Shown: one piece after another, positions 2,258 through 64,000 of the stretch
Layout: each line of letters opens with the position of its first letter
How positions within the stretch are numbered: position 1 is the first letter of the stretch
Origin: Chrysophaeum taylorii
Lineage: Eukaryota > Sar > Pelagophyceae > Pelagomonadales > Pelagomonadaceae
Direction of reading: 5' to 3'
Length of the DNA stretch: 64,000 nt
Assembly (NCBI GenBank): GCA_029834535.1
Contig: JAQMWT010000053.1
Span: 32,337-96,336, forward strand
Position numbers and translations under genes: made by a program
Notes under the pieces: model-generated
The model's database searches: none
What the model was told of the DNA's origin: nothing
What the model saw: the letters and a program-made list of their open reading frames with translations, nothing else

Positions 2258-2265
2258 ATCCGTTA

Positions 2266-7819: not shown

Positions 7820-8172
7820 GCTGTCGAAAAGAGAATCGTCCAGCAGGCTGTGTAAGTCTTCTGTCTTATGCTGCTTTAGTAGATTCCTGTTCGTACAGGG
7901 AGGAGTAATCTCAATTATATCACAATAAAATTTGCGCCACAGACTAGGTGAAGGTGGTTAATAAAGGCGGGGAGAGATCCAAATAATAATACTGTAGGGA
8001 AACGGTGGCGTAACATACGAACAGGCGTATCATCAAACTCAACAACAACATGTACTTTGATATTTAAGCCTAAGTCATTAGTGGCTTGAGACAGGGACGC
8101 TGGGGTTGACAAACCAGAACAAAGTAACATGACAGAGGGTTTGCGAAGATTGGGCTCTTGTGAGAGAAACAC
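7560..8172 (-). pseudogene. Cytosine-5 DNA methyltransferase domain in copia element A1, frameshifted
   Basis: Would transfer a methyl group from S-adenosylmethionine to cytosine C5. The first part (8172-7915) has motif I (MLLCSGLSTPASL, the FxGxG-like cofactor loop) and motif II (VVEFDD followed by the RHRFP region). A small deletion/substitution around 7935-7950 breaks the frame before motif IV; the continuing frame then reads TPPCTNRN (the PPC catalytic cysteine), AEMTPP (motif VI) and YQSRER (motif VIII). It lies just after protease and before integrase. The family call rests on motif order and spacing; no clear target-recognition domain is seen. Compared with A2, motif VIII is intact here. 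Confidence 0.75.
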
Positions 8173-9525: not shown

Positions 9526-10800
9526 GTTAGATCGAGAGGACCTGTCAAAAGTGCGGGGTAGATTGGGCGATCATGGGACTGTCCAGTAGTTTTCTTGGTG
9601 ACGTAAGAATCACCAGAACGATAATACGATAAGTCGCTGCGAGAGAAAGGCTGGCGAGCATCATTAGAGTTACGCAAGCGTCTAGCATTGAACGTGGAAG
9701 ATGTACCAGGTTGAGACGCAGTGATGAAGGCGAGTGTGCTAGCAGTTTGAGTCAGACTTTTGTCTGCTAAATCCAGCGTATTTGTAAGTAGTAACTTTGG
9801 TTTTGGTTGAGGTGTCAATCCTTCGACGTAGGGTTGCCAAGAAACAGGGCGTTCTAAGCGTCTTTTGTTCGACCCATTTGATACTACATTATATAAGTCT
9901 AATGCGCATTCTAAGATGTAGCTAGGGTTGGTAGGGTGACACAATCGTTCAGCGTCTGGCACAGGCCGAGATGAAGATCGGGTTTCATACATATACCACC
10001 AATCTACCCAACCACGATCGTAACGATTGTTGCTGGTTTTATCGGCATAATGCCGATGTATCTCTTCATAAAATTTTCTACAAAGAGTACCAAAGTCGAA
10101 TTGAAGGTCAGTCTCTTCCTGGTTAAGTTGGTAATAGATTTGCCTAAATGCTAGGACAGCTTCGATAAAGACATGGACATACCAGTTAGGATTATAAACA
10201 ACAGAGTTAAACTGCTGTTTCAAGTAGGACACATCAGTAGTCGCAACAGACTCGTAGTGACTGAAGGCAATGAGCATAATGGCTCGAGCCTTGTTGGATA
10301 AATAACTTTCGTTATACGCCTCATTGATGGCGGGCCAGGCCGCAAGTGCTGGATTTCCAACACTTTCAAGATTGAAATAAGTATGCAAGAATGTAGCATG
10401 CGTATTCTGATAAGTGTGCCAGTCAGCAGCAGTTAACGAAAACATAGTAACAGGGGCACGAACACGGGTGTCAAAAGCTAATGCTTTCGGGCGCGCGCGA
10501 TTTAAGATTCGTTCCTCTTCTAAAAAACGAACATTGATTTCAGGACGTAATGCCTTGGCTTCATTGTCGTAACAGACAGTAGCTAGCTGAGCTACTTCTG
10601 CATCAGGTAAATTGGGAAAGCTTCATTGGTGAAATGCCATTCCTGATACTCAGGGGGCAATTCATCAACAACTAAACGGAGATCAGCAGCCCTATCGGTG
10701 TTCCATTTCAGAAAAACGCGATCGAGAATTTGATTCCGGAGGATAGTATGTCCGCACCTGTGATCGTCTTGGGTGCGGCTCGTGCTGCGTGTTCTGCCAT
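9522..10800 (-). pseudogene. Gag-like capsid protein (A1), broken by a deletion
   Basis: The ATG at 10800 opens with the same residues as the A2 protein (MAEHAARAAPK, then TGADIL), but about 180 bp present in A2 at 11973-12153 are missing, which shifts the frame. The frame recovers at 10445-9522 (307 residues) and is about 92% identical to A2 over the shared part. The protein is rich in Tyr, Trp, Asn and Leu, with no zinc knuckle (CCHC), and ends in a basic Ser/Arg segment. The capsid role is inferred from its place before the protease. Confidence 0.7.
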
Positions 10801-14190: not shown

Positions 14191-14327
14191 ACTAACTAAC
14201 TAACTTCAGACCTCTCCCGAGCATGGGAGCCAGGCCGGACCGACAGGTGCCAGTCCGGAATCACGGGCCTGTAGACGAGGAGCGCCGAAAGGTCGGTCGG
14301 CGGAGAGTGACCATCAAGCTTGTCGCT
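14191..14327 (-). mobile_element. Short TTAG-tailed insertion inside the A2 protease
   Basis: Copy A1 reads straight through CCAAATA-CGCGCCG, but A2 has 137 extra bases here, starting with CTAACTAACTAACTTC (reverse of the TTAG tail) and ending in CAAGCTTGTCGC. The insert matches the 3' end of the 2266-2620 element, on the opposite strand and more 5'-truncated. Only TA is shared at both borders, so there is no clear target duplication. Confidence 0.85.
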
Positions 14328-15658: not shown

Positions 15659-16327
15659 CCTTGAGTCCCTCAATATGTTACTGCTTCGCCTTCACTCACA
15701 ACAGGCTCACGAGCAACGTACTCACTCTGTTCAATCCGAGTGTACTTATCATCAGCTGTGCTTTAAACGCTCCTCTATGGACCCGCTAACCCAATGCAAC
15801 CTACCCTATACACGTCAAGGTTTTTTACAATCCTCTATAACTTGTTTGCCAGCTTACACACTAACTCACCCACTCCTGTGTCTTATTACATAACCGTTTT
15901 CGAAACTAACCAACCGTCACACAGGTTACTACTTACAGCCTCATCAACATCACACAACTCCCACTTCTTAACTGGTGGCCACCATTCTGACGGCAACCTC
16001 ACCATAGAGAACGCCACCACCAACTATCATGCTTCCATTGACGCTTTTGGAAGCACGTATACGCTCACTGCTTCCGACATCCCCCGCGACCGGGACAGGT
16101 CCATATATTTGGAGCCGTTTGCGGGTTACTTGTGGATAGTCCAAGCCCTCCCTCAAGTTGGCTCCGCTGCCACCTATGCTATGGCACCGCCATACAAAAG
16201 CTCTTTTCCAGATGCTCTCTTGCGATGCCTGGCTGCCTTACCTACAAAGCCACCGACAACTCTTTCGACTACAAGGATTCTCATTTTGCTCTGGAAGATC
16301 ACCACTTATCTCATAGTCGCTATATAG
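15659..16327 (+). pseudogene. Linker between DNMT and integrase (A2), multiply frameshifted
   Basis: Homologous to residues 130-360 of the 1091-codon A1 frame, but spread over the frames 15507-15893 and 15794-16327. It carries SYYITVFET, GGHHSDGNLTIENA and WIVQALPQVG in the same order as A1. The region is conserved among A1, A2 and partly C (27.0-27.3 kb). I do not recognise the fold. It could be a target-recognition extension of the DNMT or an unrelated domain. Confidence 0.5.
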
Positions 16328-17790
16328 GGTACCTTCGTGGAAGTGACCGCAAACTCGGCTCTAAAATCCACTCCATGCATGCTCCATTGCCCACCGTCCG
16401 AGGGTACGCCAATATTATTTTACTCGACCCCCGCAACGGGAAATTACGCTACCCCACTCGACCGGAGTTGATTCGTGCTAACAACCACACCAAACAACAG
16501 GAATCTTTCCTCTTGTCTCTACGCCAAGACCTTTGCTGTGACATGCTCAGCAATGCTCTGCCTGCCGGTACGTACAGCACTCTGTACAAGCACCTTTCGC
16601 TCATCGTCGCCGATATTAAATCCCTTATGTTGGACCCTACCTTCCAACACACTGCTGCCGTGACGAAGAAATCCTATGTGTCCAATTTCATGACCGTTGA
16701 CCAAGCTTCCACCATGTGCAGCACAGATACCTTGTCCTTGGCACAATCTTTTATGATGTATATTTCCTGCAACTGCTTGACCGAAATGTCGTTGAACTAT
16801 ATATCTTCGTCCTACGAAGATACTCTCGCTACTCGTGATGATGAGGATGCACCTCCAAGTGACCCTGCTGCGCACCAGGATGACGACGTACCGCCTCCCC
16901 CTGCCTTAGACACCGAACTCAAGTTCGATGTTCGGCGCAAACGGCATATTCCCGCTCATCCCATTCCTCGTAAGTCCCTCGCACACGGATCTACCGAATA
17001 TCTCAATGCCAAAGAACGTGCCAATCGCTTCCACCGGGTGCATCACTGCCCCGACAACGTCGCTGCCAAGGCCCCCAACGTACTTGCTCGCCCTGGATTC
17101 TCTGCTTCCGACATACCATATCGCGACTTATGCACCGACTGCATCGCACACAACAAGCGCGACCCGCACAAGCATTTCAATGCGACCAAGCCTTCTTTTG
17201 AGCAAACACACAAAGCCGGCGAAGTCTGGGCGTGCGACGGCGGCTATGTGACCATCCCATCCGAATGGGGAGGCTTCACACATACCATCGTCTTCAAGGA
17301 ACTCATCTCGAAATTTCTCTTGGTGTACTTTACACGCACCACCAACGCCACGGAGTTCACTCAAGCTCTGGATTTTGTGTATGACATCTGTCGTACACAA
17401 CTCAACGTGCACATGCGCACCCTCTACTCCGATGCCTTCAAGCCCTACTTTAGCCAGCACACTACCTCCCCGTACCGCGTCGATAAGGGCATTCAACTCA
17501 TCGGCTTCCCGCCGCACATGCACCACTTTAACTTTGAAGTTGAGTCCGCCATCGGTTTCATCGCCTCCGCCTCCTCAACTCTCCTTCGTTCTCTCCTTAA
17601 TGCTCACTATCGTGGCGCCAAGATCGTGGAACCAGCCATCATGTTTCCGTGGGCGGTGATACACACCGTTCAAAGCTACAACCTTCTCCCGAACGCCACG
17701 CTCGAGCGCATTCATCATGCTATCCTGAGTCCGCAACAGCTACTCTACAACCAACTCAACACTCCCCAACATGACATGCTCAAGATTTTG
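16132..17790 (+). pseudogene. Linker and copia-type integrase (A2)
   Basis: One open frame up to a one-base deletion near 17788. The HHCC finger is at 17020-17150. The D,D,E triad falls at codons 17236 (Asp), 17431 (Asp) and 17536 or 17542 (Glu), the spacing known for retroviral-type integrases. Integrase would cut and join element DNA into the genome. It lies downstream of the DNMT and upstream of the missing RT, the copia arrangement. The core is well conserved with A1, with changes such as a Tyr for Phe next to the second Asp. Confidence 0.8.
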
Positions 17791-17810
17791 GCGCTGAATG
17801 TTACCTTTTA

Positions 17811-18905
17811 TTGGAGCCCCACGAACACCACAAGTGGGAACCGTGCCGCCGCAAATACTTATATCTCTGTTGCGCCAACACGCAAAACCCGCTCGTCTCC
17901 CCACGCGTCGACCATCTCGCTGACGTCGTCCTCAACCCTGAAAACGGACAAATTCGTGTTTCGTCCAAGCTGCAATTCCTCTACATGCTTCAGCATCCTA
18001 CTCCGGATCCTGAACTTGCTCCTCCGCATCACGCTCCTCCCGCGCCTTTCTCGCTCACACCCCACGCCGCTATCCAAGACCATGTCATTCAGAGGGGGAC
18101 ACGGACTCCTCATCCTCAGAGGGGGCACTCCCCACCTCCTTCAGCTCCTTCTTCGTCCCCTGCTCCTGCTTCTTCTCCCTCCTCTGACGCTCTCGCCGAC
18201 GATTCTGGCTCTATGTCACCGCCGCCCTTGCTTCCTTCTTACAAAGACCATTTTGCACAAGATGACCTCAGTCTTGTTCCAGGTTCCAAACAGCTCAACA
18301 CCCGTAAGGCAACTTCTATGCAAAATATCCAAGCCCGGCTGCAAGCGTCTACTATTGGTGCTTACAAAGCCGCTGGTGGCAAACTCGCCGATTTCCGCTG
18401 GGATCTTCGCCACCACTTTCTTACGTTCAAGTCCCCCGCCCTCTCCGCCCTTCATCTCAATGGTGGTATCCTCTGGTCTGCTATCTGCTCAGAGGGGGTA
18501 CATGCGTTGTTAGCTCGTCTTCTTCTCCCGTTGCGCACTGACTTACTTGCCCGCTACCCGCACGTCGATGGTTACTTCGCCGACGCCGAGTGCGCATCCA
18601 GCATCCCAGCTGCAACCTTTTTAACTGCTGATGGTTCACCTACGTGCCCCATTCCTCAGCCCCTTTTATCTGCGTTCACTGAACACGCTGCTGCCTTTGG
18701 CACTTCTTCCTTACAATATGCACTTACGTACCTGGCGCCGACGAGCTTCATCGATCACAACTCCTCCGAGTTTGGCGCTAATTCTGCATCTCTGTCTGAC
18801 TCGGAGGAATACCTTCTGGTCTCTACAGAGTATATCACCCAGGTCTTAAAGGCCGACCCTACTATCCATCCTACTGGAATCTGCTTCTTCTACCCCTCCT
18901 ACTGA
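17811..18905 (+). pseudogene. Integrase C-terminal part and Pro/Ser-rich linker (A2)
   Basis: Frame continuing after the deletion near 17788. The first ~60 residues (MEPHEHHKWEP, then RKYLYLCC) match the post-core segment of copia integrases. A low-complexity Pro/Ser/Ala-rich stretch follows, then a conserved segment shared with A1 (LPSYKD to SALHLNGGIL) and a Ser/Ala-rich end. In copia elements this linker leads into RT; here the frame stops at 18905 and no RT follows. Confidence 0.6.
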
Positions 18906-29178: not shown

Positions 29179-29805
29179 TCATACGAGGAAACACACTTCT
29201 TTTTGCTCGTGTTCCGACGTATGATCATCAGCTGCATTAATAGCCTGGACATCATAGTCTTCATTGGTACGTGTCTCCAGCGTAGTAGTCAGACGACAGT
29301 TGTTAATATGGGTAGAAGACAAGACCGGCATGATACTATGCGTGATAAAAAAAAAAAAAAAAAAAAAGAAGACGAGCATGCTGGAGATAGTCTCCATGGA
29401 CTCAAGAGGCGTGCTGTTATAGTCCAATCTGAGCTCCACGAAGGGAACAAGGAAGCGTGACAACATCTGACATAGTCGGGTATTGTCTGATGTACGTTGC
29501 GAGTTGAGGAGGAATCGCGCGACAGTAAGGAATTCGGGCCTTATGCCCAGCCCATAGTAGACGACCGTCGTGGACGATACGGTACCATTAGGGGTGGTGT
29601 CCGTGAGCCATACGTCATCCGGTACTGAGTAGTCAGTCTCTAGGAGGATGCAATGTTGGGCGGTTGAGTTTCCATGGAGAGGTGGGTCCTTTGAGATCGT
29701 TAGTGTCCAGTGGGCGCCGAGCAAATACAGTGGTGTTGCGGTGCTTGGAAATAGCATCACTAGAGGTCGAGCCGTTGTATCTACAAGAATGACCGAAGTA
29801 GCCAA
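29179..29805 (-). CDS. Hypothetical ORF with homopolymer tract, doubtful
   Basis: A 208-codon frame crossing a run of 21 A at 29347-29367 that gives consecutive Phe on the minus strand. The upstream half (residues 30-130) has a protein-like composition, and more protein-like frames lie further upstream (30147-29890, 30361-30089). This may be another very diverged retroelement copy, since it sits in line with copy C, but I could not align it convincingly with A1/A2. No motif supports a function. Confidence 0.25.
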   Translation of the reverse strand: MATSVILVDTTARPLVMLFPSTATPLYLLGAHWTLTISKDPPLHGNSTAQHCILLETDYSVPDDVWLTDTTPNGTVSSTTVVYYGLGIRPEFLTVARFLLNSQRTSDNTRLCQMLSRFLVPFVELRLDYNSTPLESMETISSMLVFFFFFFFFITHSIMPVLSSTHINNCRLTTTLETRTNEDYDVQAINAADDHTSEHEQKEVCFLV

Positions 29806-30835
29806 TGCATTTAACAGTGCTGAGCGAGCTGTGTGTATTCGGGATGTGCCCGCATGTTAGGCAGAACATTTTTTTGACAATGGTGTACGTTAGTAGTGTG
29901 CACTGAACAAAGCGAGCCTGATCCTTTTACGAAGGCCGGCTCTGACGGAAGTGGGGTATCCGCCATACTCTATCATCATGTTAAGTGTTGGCATAGAAGA
30001 GTGAAGCCAAGTCAAAGCGTGGTAGGCGTATTTCTGCCAACTAGAAGAGAAACGTTCAATCTCAGTAAGTCCGGTAAGTTGCAGAGCGTCAAGAGAGAGT
30101 CTGCATGCACGGGTACGAAGAGTGAGGTTGATTTCGCATGTAGCCACGACAATAAGCTGTTTGTAAAACGCTTACGAAAAGAGGTAAAACTTTCCTGATA
30201 CTGTAATCCTCCTGCAATGATGCGTCGACATGCAAAGGTGGGCGTGCGGAGACATGGAGGTCTACGTCGCCTAGGAGTGCATATGCCGAGTAGGGTTGGG
30301 AAGTTGGTATGCCTCGGTTGATAATGAGGCGTGTACCTGTAGCTAGGTTAGTGAAGTCCAAGTGCTAGGCTGCGAGCATGAGATCGGAAAGTTAGATAAC
30401 AGATCCAGTAGTCTGTTTCAGAATACCCGAAATATCTTCATGAGTAGTGCTGTTCGCAATGCTGGATGGTGTATTATCAGTGATCTTGTCAGGTGGATTG
30501 GAAAAAAAAGGAAGGGGCTAGTTTGACGACATTGCGGTCTCCAGCCTGAGTCCAGGGTTAGCGAGTTAGTGCCCTCCTTGACTAATTCTTAAGTTGACAC
30601 GATGCTTGCCGACAGGCGGGTCGACACTGAAAATCACCCGACACTAAAAATTACCCGCTCTTTCGAAACTCAGCTTCCGCAGCTAAGGCCAGCAGAGCCA
30701 AGCCGAAGGTGGCGAAGCGCCCCAAGCCATGGAAGGAGCCTGGGCGGCCCCCTATGACAGCCCGGGAGAAGCGGCAGCGAGAAAAAGCGGCTCCAGCTCG
30801 CTCCGAAGCGAGTTTTCAACAAGAAAACGGCTGCG

Positions 30836-36742: not shown

Positions 36743-38017
36743 CTATCTTAAGGACTGATCCATCGGATGGGGTGCATCAGCTATGAACGAGACAGGAGCC
36801 AGTAGCAGTGCAAGGTCGGATGACAGAACGTGTGCGTGGTCGTGCAATTGAGCGTTGGACCTGGGCATCGTCTGCATAGTCTGGAACCGTGCTGTGCAGT
36901 TGGTTTGCATTGTCTCGTCTGCTACATCAATGGGCTGAATGGTGTAGTTAGCTTTTGTGGTCTTGTGTTTCGTCTTGTCATCCAATAGAGACTGCGAGAT
37001 AGTAGTCGTTGCTATGTGCGAGACTCGAAGTAGCTGTTGAGCAGCTGTGGAGAGCTGAGTGCGTTCTTGTCTGGTAATATCTGTGGCGGTGGAGTTCCAG
37101 AGACATGATTGCGCAGCGTCGGACGTCTTGGCATTGGGGATTGCCATAAAGTGACTCGTAAGTTCAAAGTCGGACGTCGGAGAATGCATCGAACGACATC
37201 TGAGATCGCCAATTGAAATACGCCCTCGTAAGGCGTGCGCGACGTGGTGCGGGCGCGAGCGACTTATGTTGGTGATCTGAAGGTCGTGAGATACGTTGCG
37301 GCGCGGAGCGTCGGTGGAAATGACGAATACCTTGGTGTTAAAGGTGGTGACGCGGTGAGCATGGAAAAACGTGTCATGCTTCAAGAGCAAAAGCGCGTGA
37401 TGCGGGTGGTCCGAAGTCAGTGCCAAAAGGGGTGTGGCTCGCGGCAGACCTGTCTGCAAGGTAGGGCAGATGGGCGCGTGAGCTGAGATCCTGTGGTGGA
37501 GAGTATCCGGCCTGGAATGCTTGGGGTCCAGTGCGGGAATTCGACAAGGGGAATCGCCGAGGGAGAGTGCAGTAGAACCAAGGGCGATGGAAGGGTCAGT
37601 CATGCTGGGTGCATCCTCAATGGCGGAGATGCGGGGACCAGAGCAGTTAGTGCCGTAGTGACCAGGGTTGCCCATAGGCGTGTAGTGCATTCGAAGGTGC
37701 GGGCATGTGACATGCGTCCTCGAATGAGGTGTGACGTGCCGAGCGATAAGACGCTTTTGAGGGAGGCAACGTGAGTGACGGAGGTGCATGTTTATGGTGG
37801 AGCCGGCAGCTGGCGTGGAACGTTCGTCGTATGTTCCAGCGATGCGAAAGTGCCGACAGAAGCGGTTCAGGTGGAGCGAGTCTGTGCATTGTGCGCGGAG
37901 AATGTCTCCTGAGAGCGTAACATCGATTTTCCGGAGGCAGCCCAAGCGTGTGGCGTCCAGAAGAGAGCTATGCAAGGGGACATAAAGGACCGACGTGGTC
38001 GCAATAGAAACGTGCAT
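36743..38017 (-). pseudogene. Element E central ORF (E1), 424 codons
   Basis: The best preserved central part: the E2 counterpart is split (47549-48067, 48196-48552, 48549-49223). It contains HALRGRISIGDL and a downstream IPNAKTSDAAQ segment kept in both copies, and is rich in His, Arg and Thr. I see no catalytic motif, membrane segment or zinc finger. Confidence 0.4.
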
Positions 38018-38047
38018 AGTTTGCAGCTGATCGCGCCGTTCAGAACT

Positions 38048-46847: not shown

Positions 46848-47786
46848 CAAGACACCTCGAGATGTTCCCGAGGATTACGCCTACATCGACTATGGCAACC
46901 ACACTCAAGGATCCATGGCCCCACCGTATTCAATGCCCCAAGCAACAGAGCCGCAGGCTACTGACAACATCCTCTCGGAATCAGCCCCCTGGTCTGATGC
47001 ATACAGTGAAGAAGCAAGCCCGACTTCACTAGCCTCGAAGATGGTCTCCCCGACCATCCCCGATCAGCCGCCTGATCCAAGCGCTATCACCAATGCCCCG
47101 CAATGTCGTATCCACAAGGACAAGACACGCTGTCGACGGTCCCACGGTCACCATACTCGCAGGAACTCACCGCACCTGCAAGTATCAGCTCAGATTCGCC
47201 AGGGACTCCCGCCTTGATCGATATCTCTCGATCAGCCGCTCCCGATCATTTCGAAGCTGGTTCCACCTCGCTGCCTTCTCTCCCCGAAGACAGGCGCGCA
47301 CTGCCGCTCACCGGGGCTCGCTGCTGCACCCACCATCCACCTTCTCGGCCGGATGCACTGGATGACACTGCTCAGCAGGTTGCATGGACCCATCTGCGAC
47401 CACCGTGTTACGATTCGATGGATGTCACCGCGCGAGCAACAGTCACAGCACATGCTCGCCAGCTCTCCACCTCTCAATCAGTGGGCGCTTTCCTGTCTGA
47501 TGCCACCCCAATGTCTCACCGCCACAACGCTTTTGGCAACCCTCCATCATGGCCGCAGTCACAGACACGGATTTCGAGAGTTATGAACGCTCCGATCAGC
47601 CGCAAACTATGCACGCTTCTATTGCGGCCATTTCGGTCCTTTATGTCCACTCGCGTAGCTCTCTTCTGGACGCCACACGCCTACGCTGCCTCCGGAAAAT
47701 CGATGTTGCGCTCTCAGGAGACATTCTCCGCGCGCACTGCACAGACTCGCTCCGCCCGAACCGCTTCTGTCAGCATATTCGCATAA
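46633..47786 (+). pseudogene. Element E ORF c (E2)
   Basis: Frames 46633-47217 and 47103-47786. Matches E1 38048-38695 (SDAYSEEASPTSLASKMVSP, DISRSAAPDHFEAGSTSLP). Ser/Pro/Asp-rich. Frameshift near 47100-47200 where E1 is also close to a frame change. No domain recognised. Confidence 0.4.
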
Positions 47787-48552
47787 CAGGAATGTACGAC
47801 GAATGTTCCATGCCAGCAGCCGGCTCCACCTCAAACATGCACCCTAGTCACGCACGATGCCTCCCTCAAAAGCGCATTATCGCTCGGCACGTCACTCCTC
47901 ATTCGAGGAGGCATGTCACATGCCCGCACCTTCGCTTGCACTACACGCATATAGACAACCCTGGTCACTACGGCACTCGCGGCTCTGGTCCCCGCATCTC
48001 CGCCATTGAGGATGCACCCAGCATGACTGACCCTTCCATCGCCCTTGGTTCTACTGCACTCACGTAGTATGACCAAAGCGAACGTGCACTCTCCTTCGGC
48101 GATCCCCCTTTTCGATTTCCCGCACTGGACCCCACGCATTCCAGCCGGATATTCTCCTCCACGGGACCTCAGCTCACGCGCCCATCTGCACTACCTTGCA
48201 GACAGGTCAGCCGCGCACCACACCCCTTTTGGCACTGACTTCGGACCACCCGCATCACGCGCTTTTGCTCTTGGAGCATGACACGCTTCTCGATGCTCTC
48301 CGCGTCACCGCCTTCAACACCGAGACACTCGTCATTCCCACCGACGCTCTGCGCCGCCACGTATCTCACGACCTTCAGATCACCAACATAAGTCGCTCGC
48401 GCCCGCACCACGTCGCGCACGCCTTACGAGGGCGTATTTCAATTGGTGACCTCACAGGTCTTTCGTTGCATTCTCTGACGTCCGACTTTGAACTTACGAG
48501 CCACTTTATGGCAATCCCCATTGCCAAGACGTCAGACGCTGCGCAACCATGA
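47549..48552 (+). pseudogene. Element E central ORF (E2)
   Basis: Frames 47549-48067 and 48196-48552, together the counterpart of the 424-codon E1 frame. Contains HALRGRISIGDL at 48415-48450. His/Arg/Thr-rich without recognised motifs. Broken by a stop at 48065 and indels near 48150. Confidence 0.4.
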
Positions 48553-54653: not shown

Positions 54654-57010
54654 TCACGAGGGGAACCAGTGATGACGACGTCGTCCATGCCAAATCGTGC
54701 GTAGCCGGCACATGAACGTAAGCAAGCGGGTGTCAAGGGCCTGTGCGGCGTCAGGCGTTGCCAGACAGTACGCCGGTGGATGGGTGGGGTCGTCTTGCTG
54801 GCCGCCTTCTTGAGAGGCGAAGGGGACGCGATCGAGGCCGGTGGGGCCACGAAGTGCCACCCAGGATGCCGGCCGTAATTGCTTGAACATAAAGCGGCCA
54901 AAAACACGCAGCTTAGCGTTGGCGTGGTTTGCGAGTTTGTCCACGACGGTCCGGCGCTTGAGCTCATTGAAGGCGCTGCGTTCGTCCAGCTTGATGATGA
55001 CCTGGTCGGGGTACTGCTCCGCGTGGGTGCGGACGCCAAAGACGAGGGGCGAAGGACCATCTTTGACGCCGACGGCAACGTTGATCGGGTACAGTGCCTC
55101 GGATATCTCGGAGTGGAGGCTACGCACAAGGCACCGTCCAGTGGCACGGCGGCGGACGGTGCCAATGCCGATAGGTCGAACGTCAGGTGCTTGGCTAGCG
55201 TCAGCGGAGCGTCGTTTCACCAACGGAATGAGGGTTACCGTGGTGGTGATGAAGTAGTCAGGAAGGGCTCCACGAACGAACAAGGTCTCAAGGTTGTCGA
55301 TTTTGTCCATCGCCGAGCGTGCCTTGACGTTGCTCGGGAAGGGCTTGGCGAAAACGGAGAGGAATTCATTGCGGCCCTGGTCGGGGCCCACACCAGCCTT
55401 CGGCCGGAGCGCGCGGTAAGTTTCACGTAGGGCGACCGAGAGTGAGGCGAGCCCTTGCGCGTGGTTGTGGAAAGTGTGAAGGTCCTCTTTGCGAGCAGGA
55501 TGTTTGGATACGAGATGGCGCATGACGTCTGGGTGGCATGGGTCGGCGATGCCCAGGCTGGTGAGGATACGGCATGCCCGAGAGAGGTCGCCAGATTCAG
55601 CGAGTCGCAATGCACGAAGTGCGCCCGCGTCATCGTCGGGGGCCGCCCGTGAGCGTACATGGGAGCGCACGCGAGTCACGTCGTGGAGGTAGCCGCTAAT
55701 GAGGAGATCGTAACGCCCAGCGGCGAAGGCTGCAAAGCGGTCGGTGAGCACGTCGGGCCGACGGGCGCCGCCTCGTGGTGCTCGCCGAAGAAGTAGCCTG
55801 TGAAGGCTCATGTACCAACGGAGGGCACGGTCACGAGCGTCATCGGAAGTGGCGTCTTCAGACCACGAACACACCTCGGCCATTGCGCACGCCCATGCCT
55901 CGCGGAATTGGGCGGGGATGTTGCGAATGCACGAGCACGGCGATATAATGAGGTCTTTGATGGAGACCTCGTCGATCGCAGAGCGCAAATCGCCCAGGTC
56001 ACGTGGACGGCGTGTCGGGAGGGAGGGGGCTGGCCCGGATGACGTAGGGTGGACGGGGGCGACAGACGGTGGCGCCGAATGTGACCGTGGCCCAATGGGA
56101 GAAGTGCCAGGAGACGCGCTCGTGGAGGCTGCAGCCGTGACAGGGGTGTTGCGGTGGCTGGTGGCAGGGGCAGGGGCGCGGCGGTTGCCGGCGGCAGTGG
56201 CGGGGGTGGAGGGGGTGCTAGTAGTGGGGGTGGTCCGGGTGCCAGTGGCAGGGGTGTTGCGGTTGCCTGTTGCATGCGCAGTGCGGTTGCCAGACGCAGT
56301 GGTGCGGCGGTTGCCAGCGGGAGGGGTGTTAGGGGTGTTGCGGGTGCCAGTGGATCGCGTACGGGCGCCAATGTGGGAGAGGCGGGCGGCACGGGCAGCT
56401 TGGGCAGCGTGGGCGGCAGCTCGATGGGCGAGGTAAGCGTCGGCGCTGGCAGCAGCGGCGGCGGCCCGTCCCGCGTCGAGTTGGACTGCCGCAGCAGCAG
56501 CAGCAGCAGCGTGCATAGCGGCGAGATGGCGTTCCACAGCAGCAGCGGCGCGAGCGGCAAGGGCAGCGTCGCGCATACGCGCTTGAATGCGATATCGGGC
56601 GGTGGTGGCGGCAAGGGCTGCAGCAAGAGGGAAAATGCGATGGGGTGTGGCATCGCGGACCTGGGGGAAAGAGTGCACAGACACCCAGCGTTGATGAGGG
56701 CGGACCATGCGTATAGGACTGCGGCAGTTGGGGCACGGCGGAAGGCGCGCGCGGTTGGTGGGCGCCACGTCAGGGTCGCCTTGGTCGCCGGCGAGGTTGC
56801 TGAGCGCCCACTGACCAACGCAGGCGTGGTGCAGGACCACGCGACAGCAGCGGACTTGGCAACGGGTAAAGCATGAGTTGGAGCTGTGGCGCAAGGAGAA
56901 TTTAGGCCTACCTGGCATGCCTTCGAATCCTGGCTCGCCGTTCGCGTCCGTGCCCTTGATGGAGTCACTGGACGAGGATGGCCGTTCTCCCGCCACACAA
57001 CCACAAACAA
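54654..57010 (-). pseudogene. LINE2 main ORF: RING-like finger, low-complexity region, reverse transcriptase
   Basis: 780 codons from ATG 56996. Residues 42-91 have a Cys/His cluster (Cys42, 46, 50, 51, His56/57, Cys59, Cys88, Cys91) resembling a RING or PHD-type finger. Residues 115-215 are Ala-rich; 215-330 are Thr/Asn/Pro repeats (GNRNTPATGTRTT). RT motifs: LPDYFITTTVTLIPLVKR, KLDERSAFNELKRR (motif A with Asp, family form D.snAFN..R), EGGQQDDP (motif B, family form GvqQGDPlGP). A frameshift near 54720 leads into GMDDVVITG, the YxDD-equivalent box with Gly in place of the aromatic. It would prime reverse transcription at its insertion site. Confidence 0.75.
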
Positions 57011-57020
57011 CCTCCGTGCC

Positions 57021-57261
57021 TGGTCCTCACAACTCGAGGGTCGGCTGTTGCTTTATAATTAAGATATTATCGAAACACAGAAATCAAGGTGACACATGGC
57101 ACGGAAAAGGAATATGATGTCATAGAGAAAACTGACATCATCAGAACGGAGTAGTAGGGTAGTAGGATAAGGGGGGCCATAGAAGAGGGGTAAGCCTCAG
57201 GAGGCGGGAGTTGCCGCCACAGGACTCCCCTGGTAAGAATTCGAGCTGCCCCAGCGAGGTT
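57021..57261 (-). other. Junction between LINE2 5' end and gypsy element G
   Basis: No coding signal. A purine-rich stretch just after the G stop (minus strand ACCAGGGGAG at about 57222-57231) could be a polypurine tract, and sequence left of it could be the 3' LTR, but the matching 5' LTR lies outside the window, so neither can be tested. Confidence 0.3.
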
Positions 57262-57861
57262 CTAGCGCGAGGAGCGCGGCTTCGCCTTACGAGCATCTCG
57301 TGAACGAATCTTCTGGTAAACGCGGGCGATGACCGGTTCAGGAACTCGGCCACTGCGTAAAGTAAACTTGGGGATCAACACATCAATCTCGTGCGGAGCG
57401 AAATCCGTGACACAAGGAGTTGTGTTGGAGGGAATTCTGGACTTGTCGGTGAAACTTCGACCTTCAACGTCCTTGAACTCGGGCTTGAGCTTGCGGTGCG
57501 AAAGGTGAGAGGTCGGCTTGAAATAAGCGACATCATCGTTCGGACCCAAATCGGAATAGAAATGTAGAGCAACACGATCATTTTGGTAATCGTAAGGCTC
57601 GTAAACTTCGGCAACATAAATCTTCTTGCGCCAATCAGAGCGCTTCCGGTCAGGAATCCGGAAAACAACAAACTTACCGTGCTGATAATCATCACGGAAG
57701 GTTTCTTCGGGTTTGCGGATGGTTTGATCAACGATCGGAGGTACCATCACAGGCGTGATCTGACTAACATGAACACGTCGTTCTTCGGGCGGAGAGTCGA
57801 GAGACTCAATCCTATAGGTGACCGGGAAAGGCGTTCCTTGATAATAAACGGCCCTCGCCAT
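57262..57861 (-). pseudogene. Gypsy G C-terminal region after integrase, reader-like
   Basis: 199 codons, joined by a frameshift near 57845 to the integrase. PFPVTYRIESL and RRVHVSQITPV complete the GPY/F-type module. The rest has KFVVFRIP, DWRKKIYVAEVYEPYD and VALHFYSDLGPNDDVAYFKP, a beta-rich pattern recalling Tudor- or BAH-like chromatin readers (W-x-G/A-K-V then V.WY). It is not a standard chromodomain. Such C-terminal modules in gypsy elements can steer integration to chromatin marks; here that is inference. Ends with a basic tail. Confidence 0.55.
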
Positions 57862-58694
57862 TCCGGTCGAAGTTTGTTCTGAAGGAAAGGAATGTAGAGC
57901 AAAACGTGCGATCCTTCCTTGTATTCAACATCAACATGATCGGCATTATAAGCCAATCGTTGTTTCTTCAAAGCTTTATCACGAGCCTCGCGGACGATCT
58001 TCGTATAATACTTCAATCGTTCACGAGTTTCGGCGACTGCATCAGAGCGAGTCTTCGGCAATAATCGCGTATCAAAATCCATAAGCGTGTAGTCAGTCGG
58101 TAACATCGGCTGACGGTTCAGGCGCAGCATAAAGGGAGAAATCTGCGTGCCTGGAATAAACTTGCGGTTGTAACAAAACGCAATATAATGGGCAAAGTCG
58201 GGCCAATCCGTGATGTTCCGGCCCTGAAGGCAAGCACGGAGGAAGGCCTTGATAAATCGGTTGACACGCTCAGCCGGGTTCGACTGGGCATGATAAGGAA
58301 TCGTAGTTTGGTATCGTGTGTTGAAGAGATGGCAAAACTCGCGCATCAACTTGTTCACGAACTCTTTACCGTTGTCGGTACGAATCATCGTGGGCAAGTA
58401 GCCCTTGAGGAGGATGTTAATGACAAAAGACTCGAGGACAGACTCAGCAGTCTTATCGTTCAAAACATCCAGAATCAAGAAATGCGAGAACGGATCAAAA
58501 AATACTAGAAGATACGTCTCGGGACCAGCGCTGGGCAAGGGTCCAAATAAATCCATGCAAAGAACAGCACCATCACCATCGTAGACGGGCTGCTGCAAGA
58601 GTCCAGCTCGTTTCGGCTCAGGCGTACGAGCTTTCTGGCAAACTAAACATTCAGCAATGAAGACTCCAACTTCGTTCGACATGTGGGCCACCAA
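57747..58694 (-). pseudogene. Gypsy G integrase
   Basis: The frame starts inside the zinc finger (CLVCQKA, the two Cys). The catalytic core has Asp48 (CMDLFGPLP), Asp107 (RTDNGKEF) and Glu142 (NPAERVNR), giving the D,D35E pattern. IPYHAQSNPAERVNRFIK is typical of gypsy integrases. EWRGPFIIKERL at the end is the start of the GPF module. The two His of the finger lie in another frame upstream, so a shift near 58690 splits it. Confidence 0.85.
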
Positions 58695-59234
58695 AATCGT
58701 TCTTGGATAGCCTGGACGGTACTGTGACGTCCCATATGACCACCGTTAACCGGAGTGTCATGGTAGAGTCGAATAATGCGCTTGCGCAACGTAGCAGGTG
58801 CAACAATCATCGGGTGCAAATCAGCAGAAATGCGGTAAAGAACGTCTTTAACGACTTCGAATCGTTCGTTCGCTCGGGAACGTCGCGGCGTCTGACCTTG
58901 GGCCATTCGGTAGCGAATATCCTCGCAAGTAGCATCAGATTCTTGCTCACGTGCGATCTCAGCGAGCGTCATATTATCGGGTATCTTATCGATATAATCT
59001 TTGTAAGCGGCTGCGTCTTTGAAGATCTGTGGCTCATCGCGCACGGTTCTTCCGACGTTGTCTCGTAGCGTGAGACGTAGCCAATTTCATCGGATCCTTT
59101 TCATGATCTTCTTCTTCGTCTTCCGGCAGTTCGGTCGTAACAAACGACATTATGAAGTGGCAGCCGGAGGCGGGAACTCCTCGGTCATCAACAGGTCGGG
59201 GAAGCTCTTGGAACACCAAATAAGCGTGGTTCAA
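58643..59234 (-). pseudogene. Gypsy G linker and integrase H2C2 N-terminal half
   Basis: Frames 59234-59034 and 59044-58643. The second has LRKRIIRLYHDTPVNGGHMG then RFWWP, the H..H part of the H2C2 finger, preceded by ATCEDIRYRMAQGQ typical of the RNase H-integrase linker. The first frame is acidic (EDEEEDHEKD) and joins RNase H by a one-base shift near 59235. Confidence 0.7.
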
Positions 59235-60874
59235 GGTTCTCCAAACTCGTCAGTCTCGATGACATGATCTATCGGATTGCGGGAGAGACAGTCAGGGATA
59301 CTCATTCCCGGTGACTTTCCCGGCTTGTAACCAAGTTCAGGGTCAAAATTGGCGAGGCGCATCGCCCAACGAGCAAGCTGCCCAGACGAGTGCGTCGCCT
59401 TACGTAAAAACGTCAAATTTCGGTGATCGGTCTCCAAAACAGTCCGGTGCCCTTCGATGTAGGCTCGAAAGTGCTCTAGAGAAAGTATAACTGCCAGCAG
59501 CTCTAGCCGACGGGGCTCGTAATTGCGCATCTCCTTCGGCACAGCTCGGCTCCAATATTCAATCACTCGTTCTTCTCGAGTCACTCTTCCGGCATCGTCC
59601 TTGACTTCGACAATCTGGAAGAGATATGCTCCAAGTCCATCCTTGGAAGCATCGGATCGGATCTGAAAAGGCAGATCATAATCGGGGTGGTAGACTCAAC
59701 GGGAATCAACCAAAGCTTCAATAATCGTATCCCAAGCTTTCTGACACTCGGGCGTCCACTCGAACTTTACACCTTCGAGGCATAATCGTCTCAGCGGTTC
59801 CACGATCTTCGAGTAGCCCTTCACATATCGCCGGCAATAATTACTCATGCCGATGAAAGAGCGTATCTGGGTCTTCGGGGAAGTATTCGGCAAAGTACCT
59901 GGAATCGGCATCTTCTGCAGTGCTTCCAGCGTCTTCGGATTCGGCTTCAAGCCTTCTGGGGTCGAAATGTGTCCCAGAAATTCTATATCATCCTTGAGAA
60001 GGTGGAACTTCGCGGTTCGACCGCTGTACCCTCTCTGTGCCAAATGACACATCACTTCGATCAAAACTTGTAAATGTCGATGAAGATCGTCGGATCCCAT
60101 CATAATATCGTCAACAAACGCAACCAAGTCTCGATACATCCATTTCGAAAGGTCGCTCGCCATTTGCTTGCAGAAAAGAGCTCCGGCCGTCTTCACACCT
60201 AGAGGTAATCGCAAGAAACTATGAGCGCCAAGTGGGCTAACCATCGTGACAGCGTCTTGCGCTGCCGGATCCAGACGAAGGTTGTGGTATCCCCATCTAA
60301 TATCAATGCATGTCCGCCATCGTCGCATAGCGAGAAAAGCTAAAGCATCATCTTGTCGAATGTTCGGCCAACTGTCATTGACCAATTGATCGTTGAGCTG
60401 ACGTAAGTCAACTGCAGCACGGAACGCGTTTGACGTTCCAATCTCAGCTCCTTTCTTCGGAAGCATCAACACAGGAAAGCCCCAAGGTGAGTTGGCCGGA
60501 CGAATGACTCCATCCCGGCACCACTCGCTGATCTGCTTGCGGAGACAATCGAGCTTCGCAGGCGTCAATCGGTAGGGCGTCATCTTAATCGGTCGCGGAT
60601 TCGCGTCTTTGAATCGTAGAGACACAGGAGGCGAGTCCACAGGTCTCATAATCGGGTCGAAAAAGGCCCAAGAATATTGCACACAGTGACGGAGCATCAG
60701 TTTCGCCTCGTCATCTAAGTGCGGATTGTCAGGAATTCCCAGCTCCTGAACAACCTTGTCAACTTCTTCCTTCGTAGGAATTTGAACTTTCATGGCTTCG
60801 TTATCCTTGACATGCTCAGGAGTTTGCGGCAGCGGTGCACCCTCAGCATCGCGCGGCGCATCTTTCCATGGCAC
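59231..60874 (-). pseudogene. Gypsy G reverse transcriptase and RNase H, one in-frame TGA
   Basis: The frame is continuous except for TGA at 59696-59698. RT: PYRLTPAKLD, VIRPANSPWGFPV (motif 1-2), CIDIRWGYHNLRL (motif A, Asp191), LPLGVKTAGALF (motif B), FVDDIMMG (motif C, Asp255/256), FLGHISTPEGL (motif D-E). RNase H: RSDASKDGLGAYL right after the TGA supplies the first catalytic Asp, then PRRLELLAVILSLEHF (Glu) and ETDHRNLTFL (Asp). The TGA stands as CGT-TGA, consistent with a C-to-T change in a CpG Arg codon. The DNMT lies upstream. Confidence 0.9.
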
Positions 60875-60899
60875 ATCGAACTTTTCTCGTATTTTAGTC

Positions 60900-61610
60900 T
60901 CACTTCCGGGTGGCTTTTGTTGATCTTCTCGCCTTTGACACGAACGCTCGGCTCGCTCTTAATCTTCGGTTCCCGATCTTGCTCAGGATCTGGCGGAACG
61001 TCCAAATTTGGTTGTCGGGGGCAGCAGAAGAAGCATGAGACGTCCCCGGCTCATCTGTTGCAGGCGGAATCAACGGTACCTCTGGAGGTTTCCATTTGGT
61101 GCGATCTTGGAGATCATCAGTCGACACCCATCTTACGACACGTGTGCGCGTGTTTAACAGCGGAACTTGTACGTGACGAAGGGTGGTTTCATCAATTTGC
61201 AAATAATAATCAAACGGTCGGTCTGCAGGACTCAACGCGGACGGCAAAGCTTCGCCGCTCAGGTGAAAATCCTTGGTCACAGAGTTGTGCAGATCGAGTA
61301 CTAATAAGGTCATCGTGTCTGGTGGCACGACGGACGCCAAGTGTTTCAACGAGGTCGTCCTGGAGAAGCCGGCCCAATCAAAATCAAGGGGCATCGTCAG
61401 CAACTCCGAAGTCATTTTCAGATTCAGAGATCTGTAATCGGAACGGTGCGGTCCTACGCGAAGCGGGACACGCGTAACGGTATAAGCTGCGTCTGTCGCG
61501 GCTCGTGATGATCCTAAATTGTTCATCTGAAGTAAATGTCGTTCGTCGGCGTAGCGGCGAACTCTTGCTGCATATTCTTGCAAGTCTTTGGAACTGCGCG
61601 CAAATGGAGC
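60900..61610 (-). pseudogene. Gypsy G linker between DNMT and RT
   Basis: C-terminal two thirds of the frame 61940-60900. After a frameshift near 61600 it continues the DNMT: ARVRRYADERHLLQMNN, PLDFDWAGFSRTTSLKHLAS, DTMTLLVLDLHNSVTKDFH, YYLQIDETTLRHVQVPLLNT. It may include the DNMT target-recognition domain, but no motif X is recognised. It ends in a Lys-rich tail (SKARRSTKATRK), and the RT frame starts about 25 bp away. Confidence 0.5.
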
Positions 61611-62299
61611 GGATGGCTGGAAACCAACAATCGCACGCGACAGCTCATCAAACTGGGCGTTATGTCGTAAAAATTGACGACGTACACGTAAGGGTGCAAA
61701 CGTGCAACGTAAGAAATAATCGAGGCCTCCTGCTCTATCAACCACATGAAGAAACCAGCCATCTTGCATAATTTCATCGTCCAGTGGGTAGCGGTGACTC
61801 CCTTCCCAACATCTCTGGAAGTCAAGTTGCACAGAGCGGAGTGTACGCAGGGTGGCGACGCGATACACATCGACGACGACCATTCCGCGTAGGGTAAATA
61901 AGATTCGATCAACCGTAAGGTTGTAACATAGCGACCACACAGTGTGTGCTGCACCACAGGAATGTTCGGAAAGTTCTTATGGTGGATCTGGTTGGCGGTG
62001 TCCAACGCATCGAGTGCTAGCACGACTCGAAACGACGTCCCACACATTTCGTTGGCTCGTTGGAGACCTAAAGTACTGCCTCCGGCTCCACTGAACAGCA
62101 TCACCACCTTGCGATAAGTGATTGGAAGCCATTGAACCTTTTCGTATCGGCGGCGGATCTCCGCTTCGGTGATCTCGCGGCACTTCTTTTCATCTTCTTC
62201 CGACCTTCGAGCGAAATCGTCGCTGCCTTCGGGTCGTTTGAGGGTGGACTTGTCCGCCATAGCGGTCGTAGCGTCCTTCTGCGCCGTGCTCAGCAACAT
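61523..62299 (-). pseudogene. Cytosine-5 DNA methyltransferase domain in gypsy element G
   Basis: 258 codons. Motif I at residues 66-75 (VMLFSGAGGS, classical FSGxGG), motif II 93-111 (VLALDALD then HHKNFP), motif IV 148-151 (SPPC, catalytic Cys151), motif VI position 187-191 (LIEQE, Glu189), motif VIII position 219-223 (SCRVR, Arg pair kept, Gln replaced). An acidic and basic helical segment (residues 25-55) precedes the fold. The frame is open through all motifs and ends at 61523; the continuation is probably in the frame below 61610. It lies between protease and RT. Motifs are closer to classical DNMTs than those of the copia element. Confidence 0.82.
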
Positions 62300-63023
62300 C
62301 GGCGGGGAGATTCGTCGCAGCGCGTCAAGTGACTAGCGACGGAAACGGTGAAAGAAAGGTTCCCCTTGTCGTATCCTTCTTCACATTCTTTCGTAAGTTC
62401 GTTGATCGTAGAGACGTTCAACTCATCTTCGTACCTAACGATATCGCCAATCGCAAGGACTTCGCCTTGAGTGACGACCGTCGGCACTTCTTCCGTGGCA
62501 GTAACCGCCACCCGAGCAGCGGACCGGTCGTGCTCTTCGCAAGAAGAACACATTCCTTCGACAACTCCCAACTGCTCGTTCTCAGCAAACGTAGCGACGA
62601 AAACCTGTCCCTTTCCTTAGGTTTCGACAAAATAACCGGTAGATTGTAAGTTCGACCGGGCTCGATCTGAAGCGTGCGCGCAGCGTATGCCACTACTTCT
62701 CGCGCGTCTTCTCCCGGAGCTGGGGAGAATTTGGTCGTAGCATGTCCCCGCGTAGCCAAGGCTACCGTACGTTCCGGCGGCGGGCTTCGGAGATCTTTAA
62801 TCGTGCTCAAACGAGCGTAAACTCGAGTCTTGACCAGGTCGAGACTCTTCCGAAAGGCATCGTGTTGATGATTGTAAATCGGTACGGTTATCGGATTTCG
62901 ATCGTAAATAGATCGAAAGGTCACGATGGGTGCATCGACTCGTTCATCCTTAACTTTAATCTTCTTGCGCCCGTAGACGACTTGGGTTCGATAAAAACAG
63001 ATCCGATCGTGGGCGTAGTCCAC
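62290..63023 (-). pseudogene. Gypsy G region between protease and DNMT
   Basis: Frames 63023-62418 and 62571-62290. Contains KKIKVKDERVDAPIVTF, NPITVPIYNHQHDAF and RTYNLPVILSKPKE, then EGYDKGNLSFTV. The pattern of short beta-like segments could be the C-terminal half of the protease plus a linker. No catalytic motif recognised. A frameshift lies around 62500-62570. Confidence 0.45.
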
Positions 63024-63648
63024 GACGGCTCCTAAAACTCGTATATCGCGCCCTCCCTACAGGAACAGATAGTTCGTATCGGCTACAATAGCGACAATGG
63101 GGGCGGCGATGTTGTCGGCGAGGCGACCCGAATCGCGATCCAACGAAGATCGTCGTCGTATTCAACCCTGATCCGTACAGCTTGCGCTTAATCGGAAGTT
63201 CGCCTTCATCGAAAATCAACTGATCTTTGGCCAACTTTCTGACCATTTCTCGGCAAATATAAGAAACATCTGCCATTCCATCGACACCGATGGTCGTCGA
63301 GAATTTCGGTCCGTCACGATTCCTGTAGATGTGACAGGCTATAAACGTAAGAGTACCCGTATCTAAACAACTGAGGGTAATCAAATCATCTTCGATCGTC
63401 TTGCCATCTCGCGGCGTCAACGAAGTGTGAGCACATCGGGCTCTGACTCGCTCATCTCCGGGGTTGGGCATCGATACCGCGGCTTGAGCTTTCGTATCAT
63501 CTGTTGTTGGCGTCTTCGCCATAACGCTCGCGGCAGCCTCTTTATCTGGCGGCTTCCGCTCTTCCTCAAGACAATCTCCGAGGGATAAACGCTGGTAGGG
63601 GATCCTGTCTTCGTAACATTGGAAGCAAAGGACCCCTCCATAAATCAT
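62956..63648 (-). pseudogene. Gypsy G aspartic protease candidate
   Basis: 230 codons. TLTFIACHI, then TTIGVDGMADVSYICREMV, occupy the place of 'v.al.DtGA.vs.i' in gypsy proteases; Asp is kept but the following residues are Gly-Met-Ala instead of Thr/Ser-Gly-Ala, so activity is doubtful or the motif is divergent. Basic shifted sequence follows after about residue 170. Upstream (63890-63650) the sequence continues as a Pro/Arg-rich gag-like end reading AFWKDEMNDLWRG. Confidence 0.5.
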
Positions 63649-63937
63649 TCATTTCGTCTTTCCAGAATGCATCCAAATTCATTCGTCGCTGCTGATCCTC
63701 ATCAGCATCGGCGATCGGTTCCGTGTCAGCTGCGGCTTTGAGTCTGTAGCTGCGCGGTTGTTCTGGTGGCTTCTTTAGTAGAATTCCGGGACCGTACAGC
63801 TTTCGTCACACAATCCTGCAGGTTCCACGTCTGCTCGTCTTCGTCACACTTGAGAACGCTGCTATCTTCTTCATAATCTATCCTTTTCTTCCGCGGGCGT
63901 ATCCGGTTCTCTTCCGTGTCTCGATCCGTAGTATCGT

Positions 63938-64000
63938 AAAAAAAAAAAAAAAAAACCGTATCGGGGGGTCCCCAGGATGGGGGGGGGGGGATTTTCCATC
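63938..64000. other. Homopolymer-rich window edge
   Basis: An 18-A run (63938-63955) and a 12-G run (63979-63990) close the window. Homopolymers of this length are prone to length error in assemblies, so frames beyond this point should be treated with care. Confidence 0.6.

What the first reader, a model, noticed from the sequence alone, without database searches (positions are those of the whole stretch)
61523..62299. Independent DNMT inside a Ty3/gypsy element, between protease and reverse transcriptase
Seen: FSGAGG, ALDALD, SPPC, IEQE and CRVR motifs in one open frame, followed by linker, RT, RNase H and integrase on the same strand. Its motif I and IV are classical, unlike the copia version, and its position in pol differs. 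Inferred: a separate acquisition in another LTR lineage of the same genome.
Basis: partly seen in the sequence, partly recalled or inferred. Interest (0 to 1): 0.88.

Follow-up and report, generated by a model that had tools for sequence, protein, structure and literature searches.

The report
Jumping gene carrying DNA-methylating enzyme
In a golden-brown marine alga, a multicopy virus-like jumping gene carries its own cytosine methyltransferase domain, kept by selection, inside the protein that copies it; similar captures are known in two other algal groups, with other enzymes.

Summary
Window 61257-62173 (-) encodes a C5-cytosine methyltransferase (DNMT) domain between a protease-like region and the reverse transcriptase of a Ty3/gypsy element. 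The genome is Chrysophaeum taylorii, a pelagophyte alga. Two capped searches list 186 related DNMT places; one copy has the whole order in one 3063-residue frame. Nine of 143 DNMT places sit between two copies of the element's 337-bp TG...CA LTR. Between the two sub-families the DNMT's dN/dS is 0.07, close to integrase and RNase H: the domain serves the element. It is not detectably related to host DNMT5 or to a second DNMT family in other repeats of this genome; weak affinity is to DNMT2 and phage C5-methyltransferases. A gypsy element with a DNMT in Pol is published for the charophyte Klebsormidium (Dnmt3-type), so this is a new variant of a known kind. What it methylates is inferred; CpG is not depleted in window or element.

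The parts
56885..57221 (-). 3' LTR, 337 bp, TGTGGCG...CGCCACA ends
   Evidence: homology between copies ends at 56885; the unit recurs upstream of DNMT in other copies; 9 of 143 DNMT places have it on both sides
57225..57231 (-). polypurine-tract-like AGGGGAG just before the 3' LTR
   Evidence: sequence printed; role inferred
57262..57924 (-). C-terminal end of integrase / Pol
   Evidence: 98% identical over 187 residues to the C5 frame; no Pfam family
57747..58745 (-). integrase core (rve)
   Evidence: PF00665 E=1.4e-12
58643..59086 (-). integrase H2C2 zinc domain
   Evidence: PF17921 E=2.7e-12
59231..59695 (-). RNase H
   Evidence: PF17917 E=2.6e-27
59696..60958 (-). reverse transcriptase, FVDDI motif
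   Evidence: PF00078 E=5.2e-13
60900..61256 (-). linker between DNMT and RT
   Evidence: in an A/B pair of other copies this linker evolves faster than the DNMT (dN/dS 0.19 against 0.07)
61257..61598 (-). DNMT C-terminal part: short target-recognition region and motifs IX-X, in a different frame (this copy is frameshifted)
   Evidence: 89% identical to L028 DNMT residues 196-309; motif IX-X alignment of L028 to one phage C5-MTase
61553..62173 (-). DNMT N-terminal part: motifs I (FSGAGG), IV (SPPC), VI (IEQE), VIII (CRVR)
   Evidence: PF00145; 98.6% identical to L028 residues 1-207
62290..62616 (-). part of the linker between protease-like region and DNMT (another frame)
   Evidence: 98% identical over 102 residues to the C5 frame
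62956..63648 (-). protease-like region (VDGMADVSYI); the frame shifts further downstream in this copy
   Evidence: for the intact frame; retropepsin assignment by motif only, no Pfam match

Best explanation
An LTR retrotransposon family of the Ty3/gypsy type (about 10-12 kb, 337-bp LTRs) in the pelagophyte Chrysophaeum taylorii has a C5-cytosine methyltransferase domain fixed in its Gag-Pol polyprotein, between the protease-like region and the reverse transcriptase. Shown: the domain, its place, its copy number, its flanking LTRs and its purifying selection. Inferred: it is released with or stays joined to RT, so it sits in the particle where cDNA is made and methylates cytosines of the element's own new DNA (or its RNA), so that the new copy enters the nucleus already marked; this could hide it from sensors of unmethylated DNA, protect it, or tune its expression. 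The window copy itself is a frameshifted relic and cannot make the enzyme in one frame.
For: Pfam domains in order on one strand; one 3063-residue frame with protease-like region, DNMT (residues 1422-1730), RT, RNase H and integrase in a C5 copy. 186 DNMT places on 151 contigs from two capped searches, in two sub-families, DNMTs 79-84% identical to each other's first member. 9 of 143 DNMT places are flanked by two LTRs on the same strand, and 17 more by one. 59 of 100 RT places have a listed DNMT within 3 kb upstream, counting 4 added by the second search; of the other 41 I read 8, and 8 of 8 hold DNMT pieces; 33 were not read. Of 30 gapless DNMT copies the motif IV cysteine is in 30, IEQE in 30, FSGAGG in 29, SPPC in 29 (8 of 30 clade-A loci and 2 of 9 clade-B loci with broken frames were left out, and the clade-A loci were the top-scoring ones, so intact copies are over-represented). 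dN/dS: 0.20 in 253 A-A pairs, 0.16 in 21 B-B pairs, 0.067 in 161 A-B pairs, synonymous sites nearly saturated; in one A/B pair DNMT 0.072, protease-like region 0.065, RNase H 0.068, integrase 0.057, RT 0.027, linkers 0.18-0.19. Published precedent: SymbioDIRS-Dnmt3 DNMTs methylate CG de novo (PMC5890265, abstract passage and Discussion).
Against: No activity, expression or methylation data. No CpG depletion: observed/expected 1.04 in the window, 1.20-1.33 in three copies; C/T mismatches between copies are not highest at CpG (clade A: CG 0.036, CT 0.078). Departures from consensus: PPCV for PPCQ, IEQE for ENV, AS for GN in motif X. Similarity to other C5-MTases rests on motifs I-IV: local hhalign covers only columns 20-111, and the alignment over motifs IX-X comes from a forced global run; the C-terminal half beats shuffles against one reference (L081) for clade A (z=6.9) but not for clade B (0.8). 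The dN/dS of the stretch from the target-recognition region to motif X is undefined in the A/B pair (saturated synonymous sites). AlphaFold2 of the window ORF alone failed (mean pLDDT 34.9).
Confidence: 0.55

Rival explanations
1. The domain methylates RNA (the element's genomic RNA, or a host tRNA used as primer) rather than DNA, in the manner of DNMT2.
For: The only methyltransferases among PDB matches to the window ORF (3 matches at E<=1) and to the family profile (6 at E<=10) are DNMT2/TRDMT1, E=0.11-0.2; SPPC motif IV as in DNMT2; no CpG deamination trace.
Against: Those PDB matches are not significant; the CFT motif seen in the printed DNMT2 chains is not in the gypsy domain; two phage C5-MTases align better (z 9.8-12.0 against 5.8-6.4), though these two were fetched because they resembled the domain.
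Confidence: 0.2
2. The fold is kept but catalysis is lost; the domain works as a binding module (SAM sensor, nucleic-acid binding, particle assembly).
For: PPCV, IEQE and the altered motif X depart from catalytic consensus.
Against: The catalytic Cys is in 30 of 30 and the motif VI Glu in 30 of 30 gapless copies, and motif I FSGAGG in 29 of 30; a mere scaffold need not keep these.
Confidence: 0.15
3. The domain acts on the host (on chromatin or on competing elements) rather than on the element's own nucleic acid.
For: 186 listed DNMT places of this family and a second, unrelated DNMT family in the same genome.
Against: The domain lies inside the Pol frame rather than in a frame of its own; there are no data on the host methylome.
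Confidence: 0.1
4. A chance motif match or an assembly artefact.
For: The window ORF alone is below Pfam's cut-off; no outside relative was found.
Against: 0 of 300 shuffles of two related copies against host DNMT2; 186 places; LTR pairs around it; purifying selection.
Confidence: 0.02

Closest known systems
KnitGypsy-Dnmt3 of Klebsormidium nitens (de Mendoza et al. 2018, PMC5890265; passages and the Discussion read)
   Same: LTR Gypsy element with a DNMT in the Pol frame, several distinct copies, purifying selection (Ka/Ks < 0.2)
   Different: Host here is a pelagophyte; the DNMT is not matched to DNMT3 here (SPPCV, not the PCN that I recall for DNMT3); 186 listed places; position between protease-like region and RT (the paper's exact position was not read)
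SymbioDIRS-Dnmt3 and SymbioLINE-Dnmt (same paper)
   Same: Retrotransposons that encode a C5-MTase; in DIRS it shares Pol with RT; CG methylation shown for the DIRS DNMT
   Different: DIRS (tyrosine recombinase) and LINE classes, dinoflagellate hosts; SymbioLINE is reported CG-depleted, the copies here are CG-rich
DNMT2/TRDMT1 and phage C5-methyltransferases (PF00145)
   Same: C5-MTase motif order; SPPC as in DNMT2; best alignments found
   Different: Weak similarity, mostly motifs I-IV; no CFT motif; Q of PCQ and GN of motif X replaced
ParB-plus-methyltransferase protein of the algal DNA transposon Sola1-1_Ec32 (PMC12477816; passages read)
   Same: A mobile element that carries a DNA methyltransferase
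   Different: Predicted N4C or N6A methylation, DNA transposon, separate gene

Membership tests
Ty3/gypsy LTR retrotransposon | Pol order protease, RT, RNase H, integrase (integrase after RNase H) | tested here: met
   protease by motif only
Ty3/gypsy LTR retrotransposon | Two LTRs with TG...CA ends | tested here: met
   In other copies: 9 of 143 DNMT places between two LTRs; the ends were read at the window's 3' LTR and in some loci; the window shows only the 3' LTR because the contig ends. Target-site duplications not established
Ty3/gypsy LTR retrotransposon | RT phylogeny within Metaviridae | not tested
   no tree built; Pfam RVT_1 and RT_RNaseH used instead
C5-cytosine methyltransferase (PF00145) | Family profile over curated cut-off (22 bits) | tested here: met
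   26.8 bits for the L028 domain; 14 of 14 domains match at E<=1, best 1.4e-6; two longer frames score 19.2 and 20.9, below the cut-off; window ORF 19.2
C5-cytosine methyltransferase (PF00145) | Motifs I, IV (PC), VI (E), VIII (RxR) in canonical order | tested here: met
C5-cytosine methyltransferase (PF00145) | Motifs IX and X after a target-recognition region | tested here: inconclusive
   Clear alignment of clade A with phage L081 (z=6.9) and in a forced global hhalign; not above shuffles for clade B or for the other four DNMT2/phage references (z -1.2 to 1.2); GN of motif X replaced by AS
C5-cytosine methyltransferase (PF00145) | Methylates cytosine | not testable with these tools
   needs an assay
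DNMT3 (as in KnitGypsy-Dnmt3) | Similarity to DNMT3 above other classes | tested here: inconclusive
   No DNMT3 chain among the 6 PDB matches at E<=10; no DNMT3 sequence was aligned directly
DNMT2 | CFT motif and significant similarity to DNMT2 structures | tested here: not met
   E=0.11-0.2; CFT of the printed DNMT2 chains absent from the alignment
DNMT5 | Significant similarity to the DNMT5 catalytic domain, SNF2 ATPase attached | tested here: not met
   host DNMT5 z=0.5 and 1.7, Ostreococcus DNMT5 -0.6 and -0.8; the best partial value is 2.3 for the clade-B C-terminal half; no SNF2 in two frames scanned
Second DNMT family of this genome | Detectable homology between the two DNMT profiles beyond the common fold | tested here: not met
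   hhalign probability 1.2% (both alignments shallow); z -0.6 to 1.4

The most novel reading that the evidence does not exclude
Gypsy elements of a pelagophyte captured a C5-methyltransferase of a lineage outside DNMT1/3/5 (bacterial/phage-like or DNMT2-like), and a second repeat family of the same genome captured an unrelated one. Two selfish families in one 71-Mb genome would then carry self-marking enzymes, possibly with non-CpG specificity, in a host that has its own DNMT5.
Probability: 0.35. Interest if true: 0.78.

Novelty: new variant of a known kind. Interest (0 to 1): 0.6.

Why it matters
Cytosine methylation is mostly seen as a weapon against transposons. A further, unrelated algal lineage in which an abundant retrotransposon keeps its own methyltransferase under strong selection would argue that the enzyme serves the element in a general way. 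The genome was sequenced with Oxford Nanopore and PacBio as well as Illumina (PMC10366177, passages), so the methylation state of these copies could probably be read from existing data.

Tried and rejected
Perkinsus as host: first guess, dropped; the recalled dinoflagellate spliced-leader pattern had 0 matches and a host protein matched Chrysophaeum taylorii at 100% on a contig of the same length.

A 363-bp repeat in the C49 copy was first taken for its LTR; rejected: it interrupts the element's 3' end there. The true LTR was found at the shared 3' boundary.

Copies whose RT had no listed DNMT as DNMT-free relatives: rejected for the 8 read; 33 not read.

Outside relatives: none at E<=0.001 among 7134 candidates or E<=1 among 7998 in the protein collection, whose search needs shared 5-residue words; none confirmed in viral contigs (25 pattern matches); in phages 6 records at the E<=10 limit with a clade-B query, best E=0.02. 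The protein collection holds at least one annotated Chrysophaeum protein, so absence may reflect repeat masking before annotation.

Structure: AlphaFold2 of the window ORF alone gave pLDDT 34.9; no fold search was made. No family tree was built: the domain is too divergent and no DNMT1/3/4/6 sequences were fetched. rRNA identification (RF01960) did not complete.

Full report
What is there. The finding was checked on the - strand of 56885-64000. The ORF 61523-62332 carries FSGAGG, ALDALD, SPPC, IEQE and CRVR in order. Pfam gives PF00145 at 19.2 bits for this ORF, and RVT_1, RT_RNaseH, Integrase_H2C2 and rve for the ORFs that follow. Compared with a better-preserved copy (L028), the window holds DNMT residues 1-207 at 62173-61553 and 196-309 at 61598-61257 in another frame: the copy is frameshifted inside the domain, and its polyprotein falls into several frames elsewhere. 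The contig ends at window position 64000, so gag and the 5' LTR are not in the window.

The organism. A host DNMT5 gene of this genome (C621) is 100% identical to CTAYLR_010750 of Chrysophaeum taylorii, on a contig of the same length, 23,557. The assembly size fits: 70.8 Mb in 697 contigs here, 71 Mb in 702 contigs in the genome paper (PMC10366177, passages). It is a pelagophyte stramenopile. In the held main text of that paper the words repeat, transpos- and gypsy do not occur.

The element. In a copy on contig C5 the order is one open frame of 3063 residues: acidic N-terminal region, protease-like region (VDGMADVSYI; assigned by motif only), linker, DNMT (1422-1730), linker, RT, RNase H, integrase (the domain names after DNMT rest on Pfam for the window). 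The shared 3' boundary of copies is window 56885. The 337-bp unit 56885-57221 begins TGTGGCG and ends CGCCACA and recurs upstream of DNMT copies. Of 143 listed DNMT places, 9 lie between two such units on the same strand (span 9,979-11,904 bp; 4 of the 9 span 10,457-10,486) and 17 have one, the window copy among them. The 64 unit places used come from two searches capped at 40 scored candidates each, so the counts are lower bounds. These are LTRs, and the DNMT is inside them. Target-site duplications were not established.

Copy number. A search with the window DNMT lists 143 places (143 scored of 921 candidates), one with a clade-B DNMT lists 128 (of 1017); merged, 186 places on 151 contigs. 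More candidates were not scored, so true numbers may be higher; some contigs look like duplicates of each other (C10/C297), which works the other way. There are two sub-families, clade-B DNMTs 79-84% identical to a clade-A one. Of 100 RT places, 55 have a listed DNMT within 3 kb upstream, mostly at 600-660 bp, 59 with the second list. I read the upstream DNA of 8 of the other 41, and all 8 hold DNMT pieces. I found no DNMT-free relative, but 33 were not read.

Selection. In 30 gapless copies the motif IV cysteine is present in 30 and IEQE in 30; FSGAGG in 29; SPPC in 29; one has a stop. These 30 are 22 of the 30 clade-A loci plus L054, and 7 of 9 clade-B loci; the rest had broken frames, and the clade-A loci were the top-scoring ones. 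dN/dS is 0.20 within A (253 pairs), 0.16 within B (21 pairs) and 0.067 between them (161 pairs; synonymous sites nearly saturated). In one A/B pair (L064, L055) the DNMT has 0.072 (motifs I-IV 0.100, VI-VIII 0.057, target-recognition region to motif X undefined by saturation), protease-like region 0.065, RNase H 0.068, integrase 0.057, RT 0.027, the two linkers 0.18-0.19. The DNMT is conserved like the working parts of Pol, not like the linkers.

What kind of DNMT. All 14 copies scanned match PF00145. PDB comparison finds DNMT2 as the only methyltransferase, at E=0.11-0.2. Shuffle tests (clade A, clade B): host DNMT2 z=5.8, 6.4; phage C5-MTases L078 9.8, 10.9 and L081 10.2, 12.0, but these two were fetched because they resembled the domain; L082 3.0, 2.5; L083 0.1, 1.9; host DNMT5 0.5, 1.7; Ostreococcus DNMT5 -0.6, -0.8; second DNMT family -0.6 to 1.4. 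The signal comes mostly from residues 1-120. The C-terminal half aligns over motifs IX-X with L081 for clade A (z=6.9) but not for clade B (0.8) nor, in either clade, with the other four DNMT2/phage references (-1.2 to 1.2). hhalign of the family against these five references gave 95.4% over columns 20-111 in local mode; the run over 263 columns (96.6%), which also pairs motifs IX-X, was a forced global one. So it is a C5-MTase with motifs I-VIII in canonical order, probably with IX-X, with unusual PPCV, IEQE and motif X, of unresolved class.

The other DNMT of this genome. A second DNMT family (LPCQ, ENVPPN) has 130 matches, some of them pieces of one place, from 120 scored of 652 candidates, and diverged relatives in the window at 29371-30189 (-), 37433-38041 (-) and 47546-48142 (+). 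Its profile is unrelated to the gypsy one at this sensitivity. The capped RVT_2 list (150 scored of 1670) makes this weak.

Methylation traces. CpG observed/expected is 1.04 in the window and 1.33, 1.33 and 1.20 in three 10-kb loci holding copies. C/T mismatches between clade-A DNMT copies are 0.036 at CG, 0.035 at CA, 0.024 at CC and 0.078 at CT; in clade B 0.048, 0.021, 0.058, 0.057. Pairs are not independent. This speaks against long-term heavy CpG methylation with deamination; it does not exclude methylation that is brief, in RNA, or in another context.

How it probably works. Shown elsewhere: a retrotransposon DNMT in Pol (SymbioDIRS) can methylate CG de novo, and its authors propose cDNA methylation (PMC5890265, Discussion). 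Here the position next to RT and the selection fit the same idea. My confidence is about 0.9 that this is a real DNMT-bearing gypsy family, about 0.5 that its substrate is the element's own DNA.

Novelty. KnitGypsy-Dnmt3 is a published gypsy element with a DNMT in Pol. A 2025 paper speaks of LTR Copia and DIRS when citing that 2018 work (PMC12344493, passage), while the 2018 text says Gypsy. Among the titles and abstract starts listed by searches (the last ones capped at 20 rows) I saw no report of DNMT-bearing retrotransposons in pelagophytes or other stramenopiles. Of five papers I read passages, and one section (Discussion) of one of them; the others on the lists were not opened, and most subscription papers are not held. 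New here: host lineage, DNMT class, copy number, and coexistence with an unrelated DNMT family.

Noticed in passing
window 29371-30189 (-), 37433-38041 (-), 47546-48142 (+): Diverged relatives (24-36% identical) of a second DNMT family that has 130 matches (pieces included) elsewhere in the genome.
   Followed up: partly
window 54654-57026 (-): A long frame with an RT-like stretch (LINE-like by eye). The DNA from 56884 downwards, which abuts the gypsy 3' LTR, is itself a repeat with 40 listed matches.
   Followed up: partly
window 4547-7957 (-) and 16042-18510 (+): Frames with weak rve and, in the first, SH3_retrovirus matches below the curated cut-offs, copia-like; the second DNMT was not found there by tblastn.
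   Followed up: no
L053/L065; window 2263-2620 (-): A 363-bp repeat occurs twice in the C49 stretch and nearly in full once in the window, with partial copies at 14191, 20415, 32828, 33146 and 41572; nature unknown.
   Followed up: no
L077 (C621) and L001 (C634): Host DNMT5 (DNMT and SNF2 domains; 2086-residue open frame) and a host DNMT2; these are the two best of 57 PF00145 matches.
   Followed up: partly
L064 ORF residues about 1050-1060: The protease-like active site reads VDGMADVSYI, unusual beside the D(S/T)GA that I recall for retropepsins.
   Followed up: no
G000 contigs C10/C297 and C25/C521: Matches at nearly the same coordinates in both contigs of each pair, as if parts of the assembly were duplicated or allelic.
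   Followed up: no
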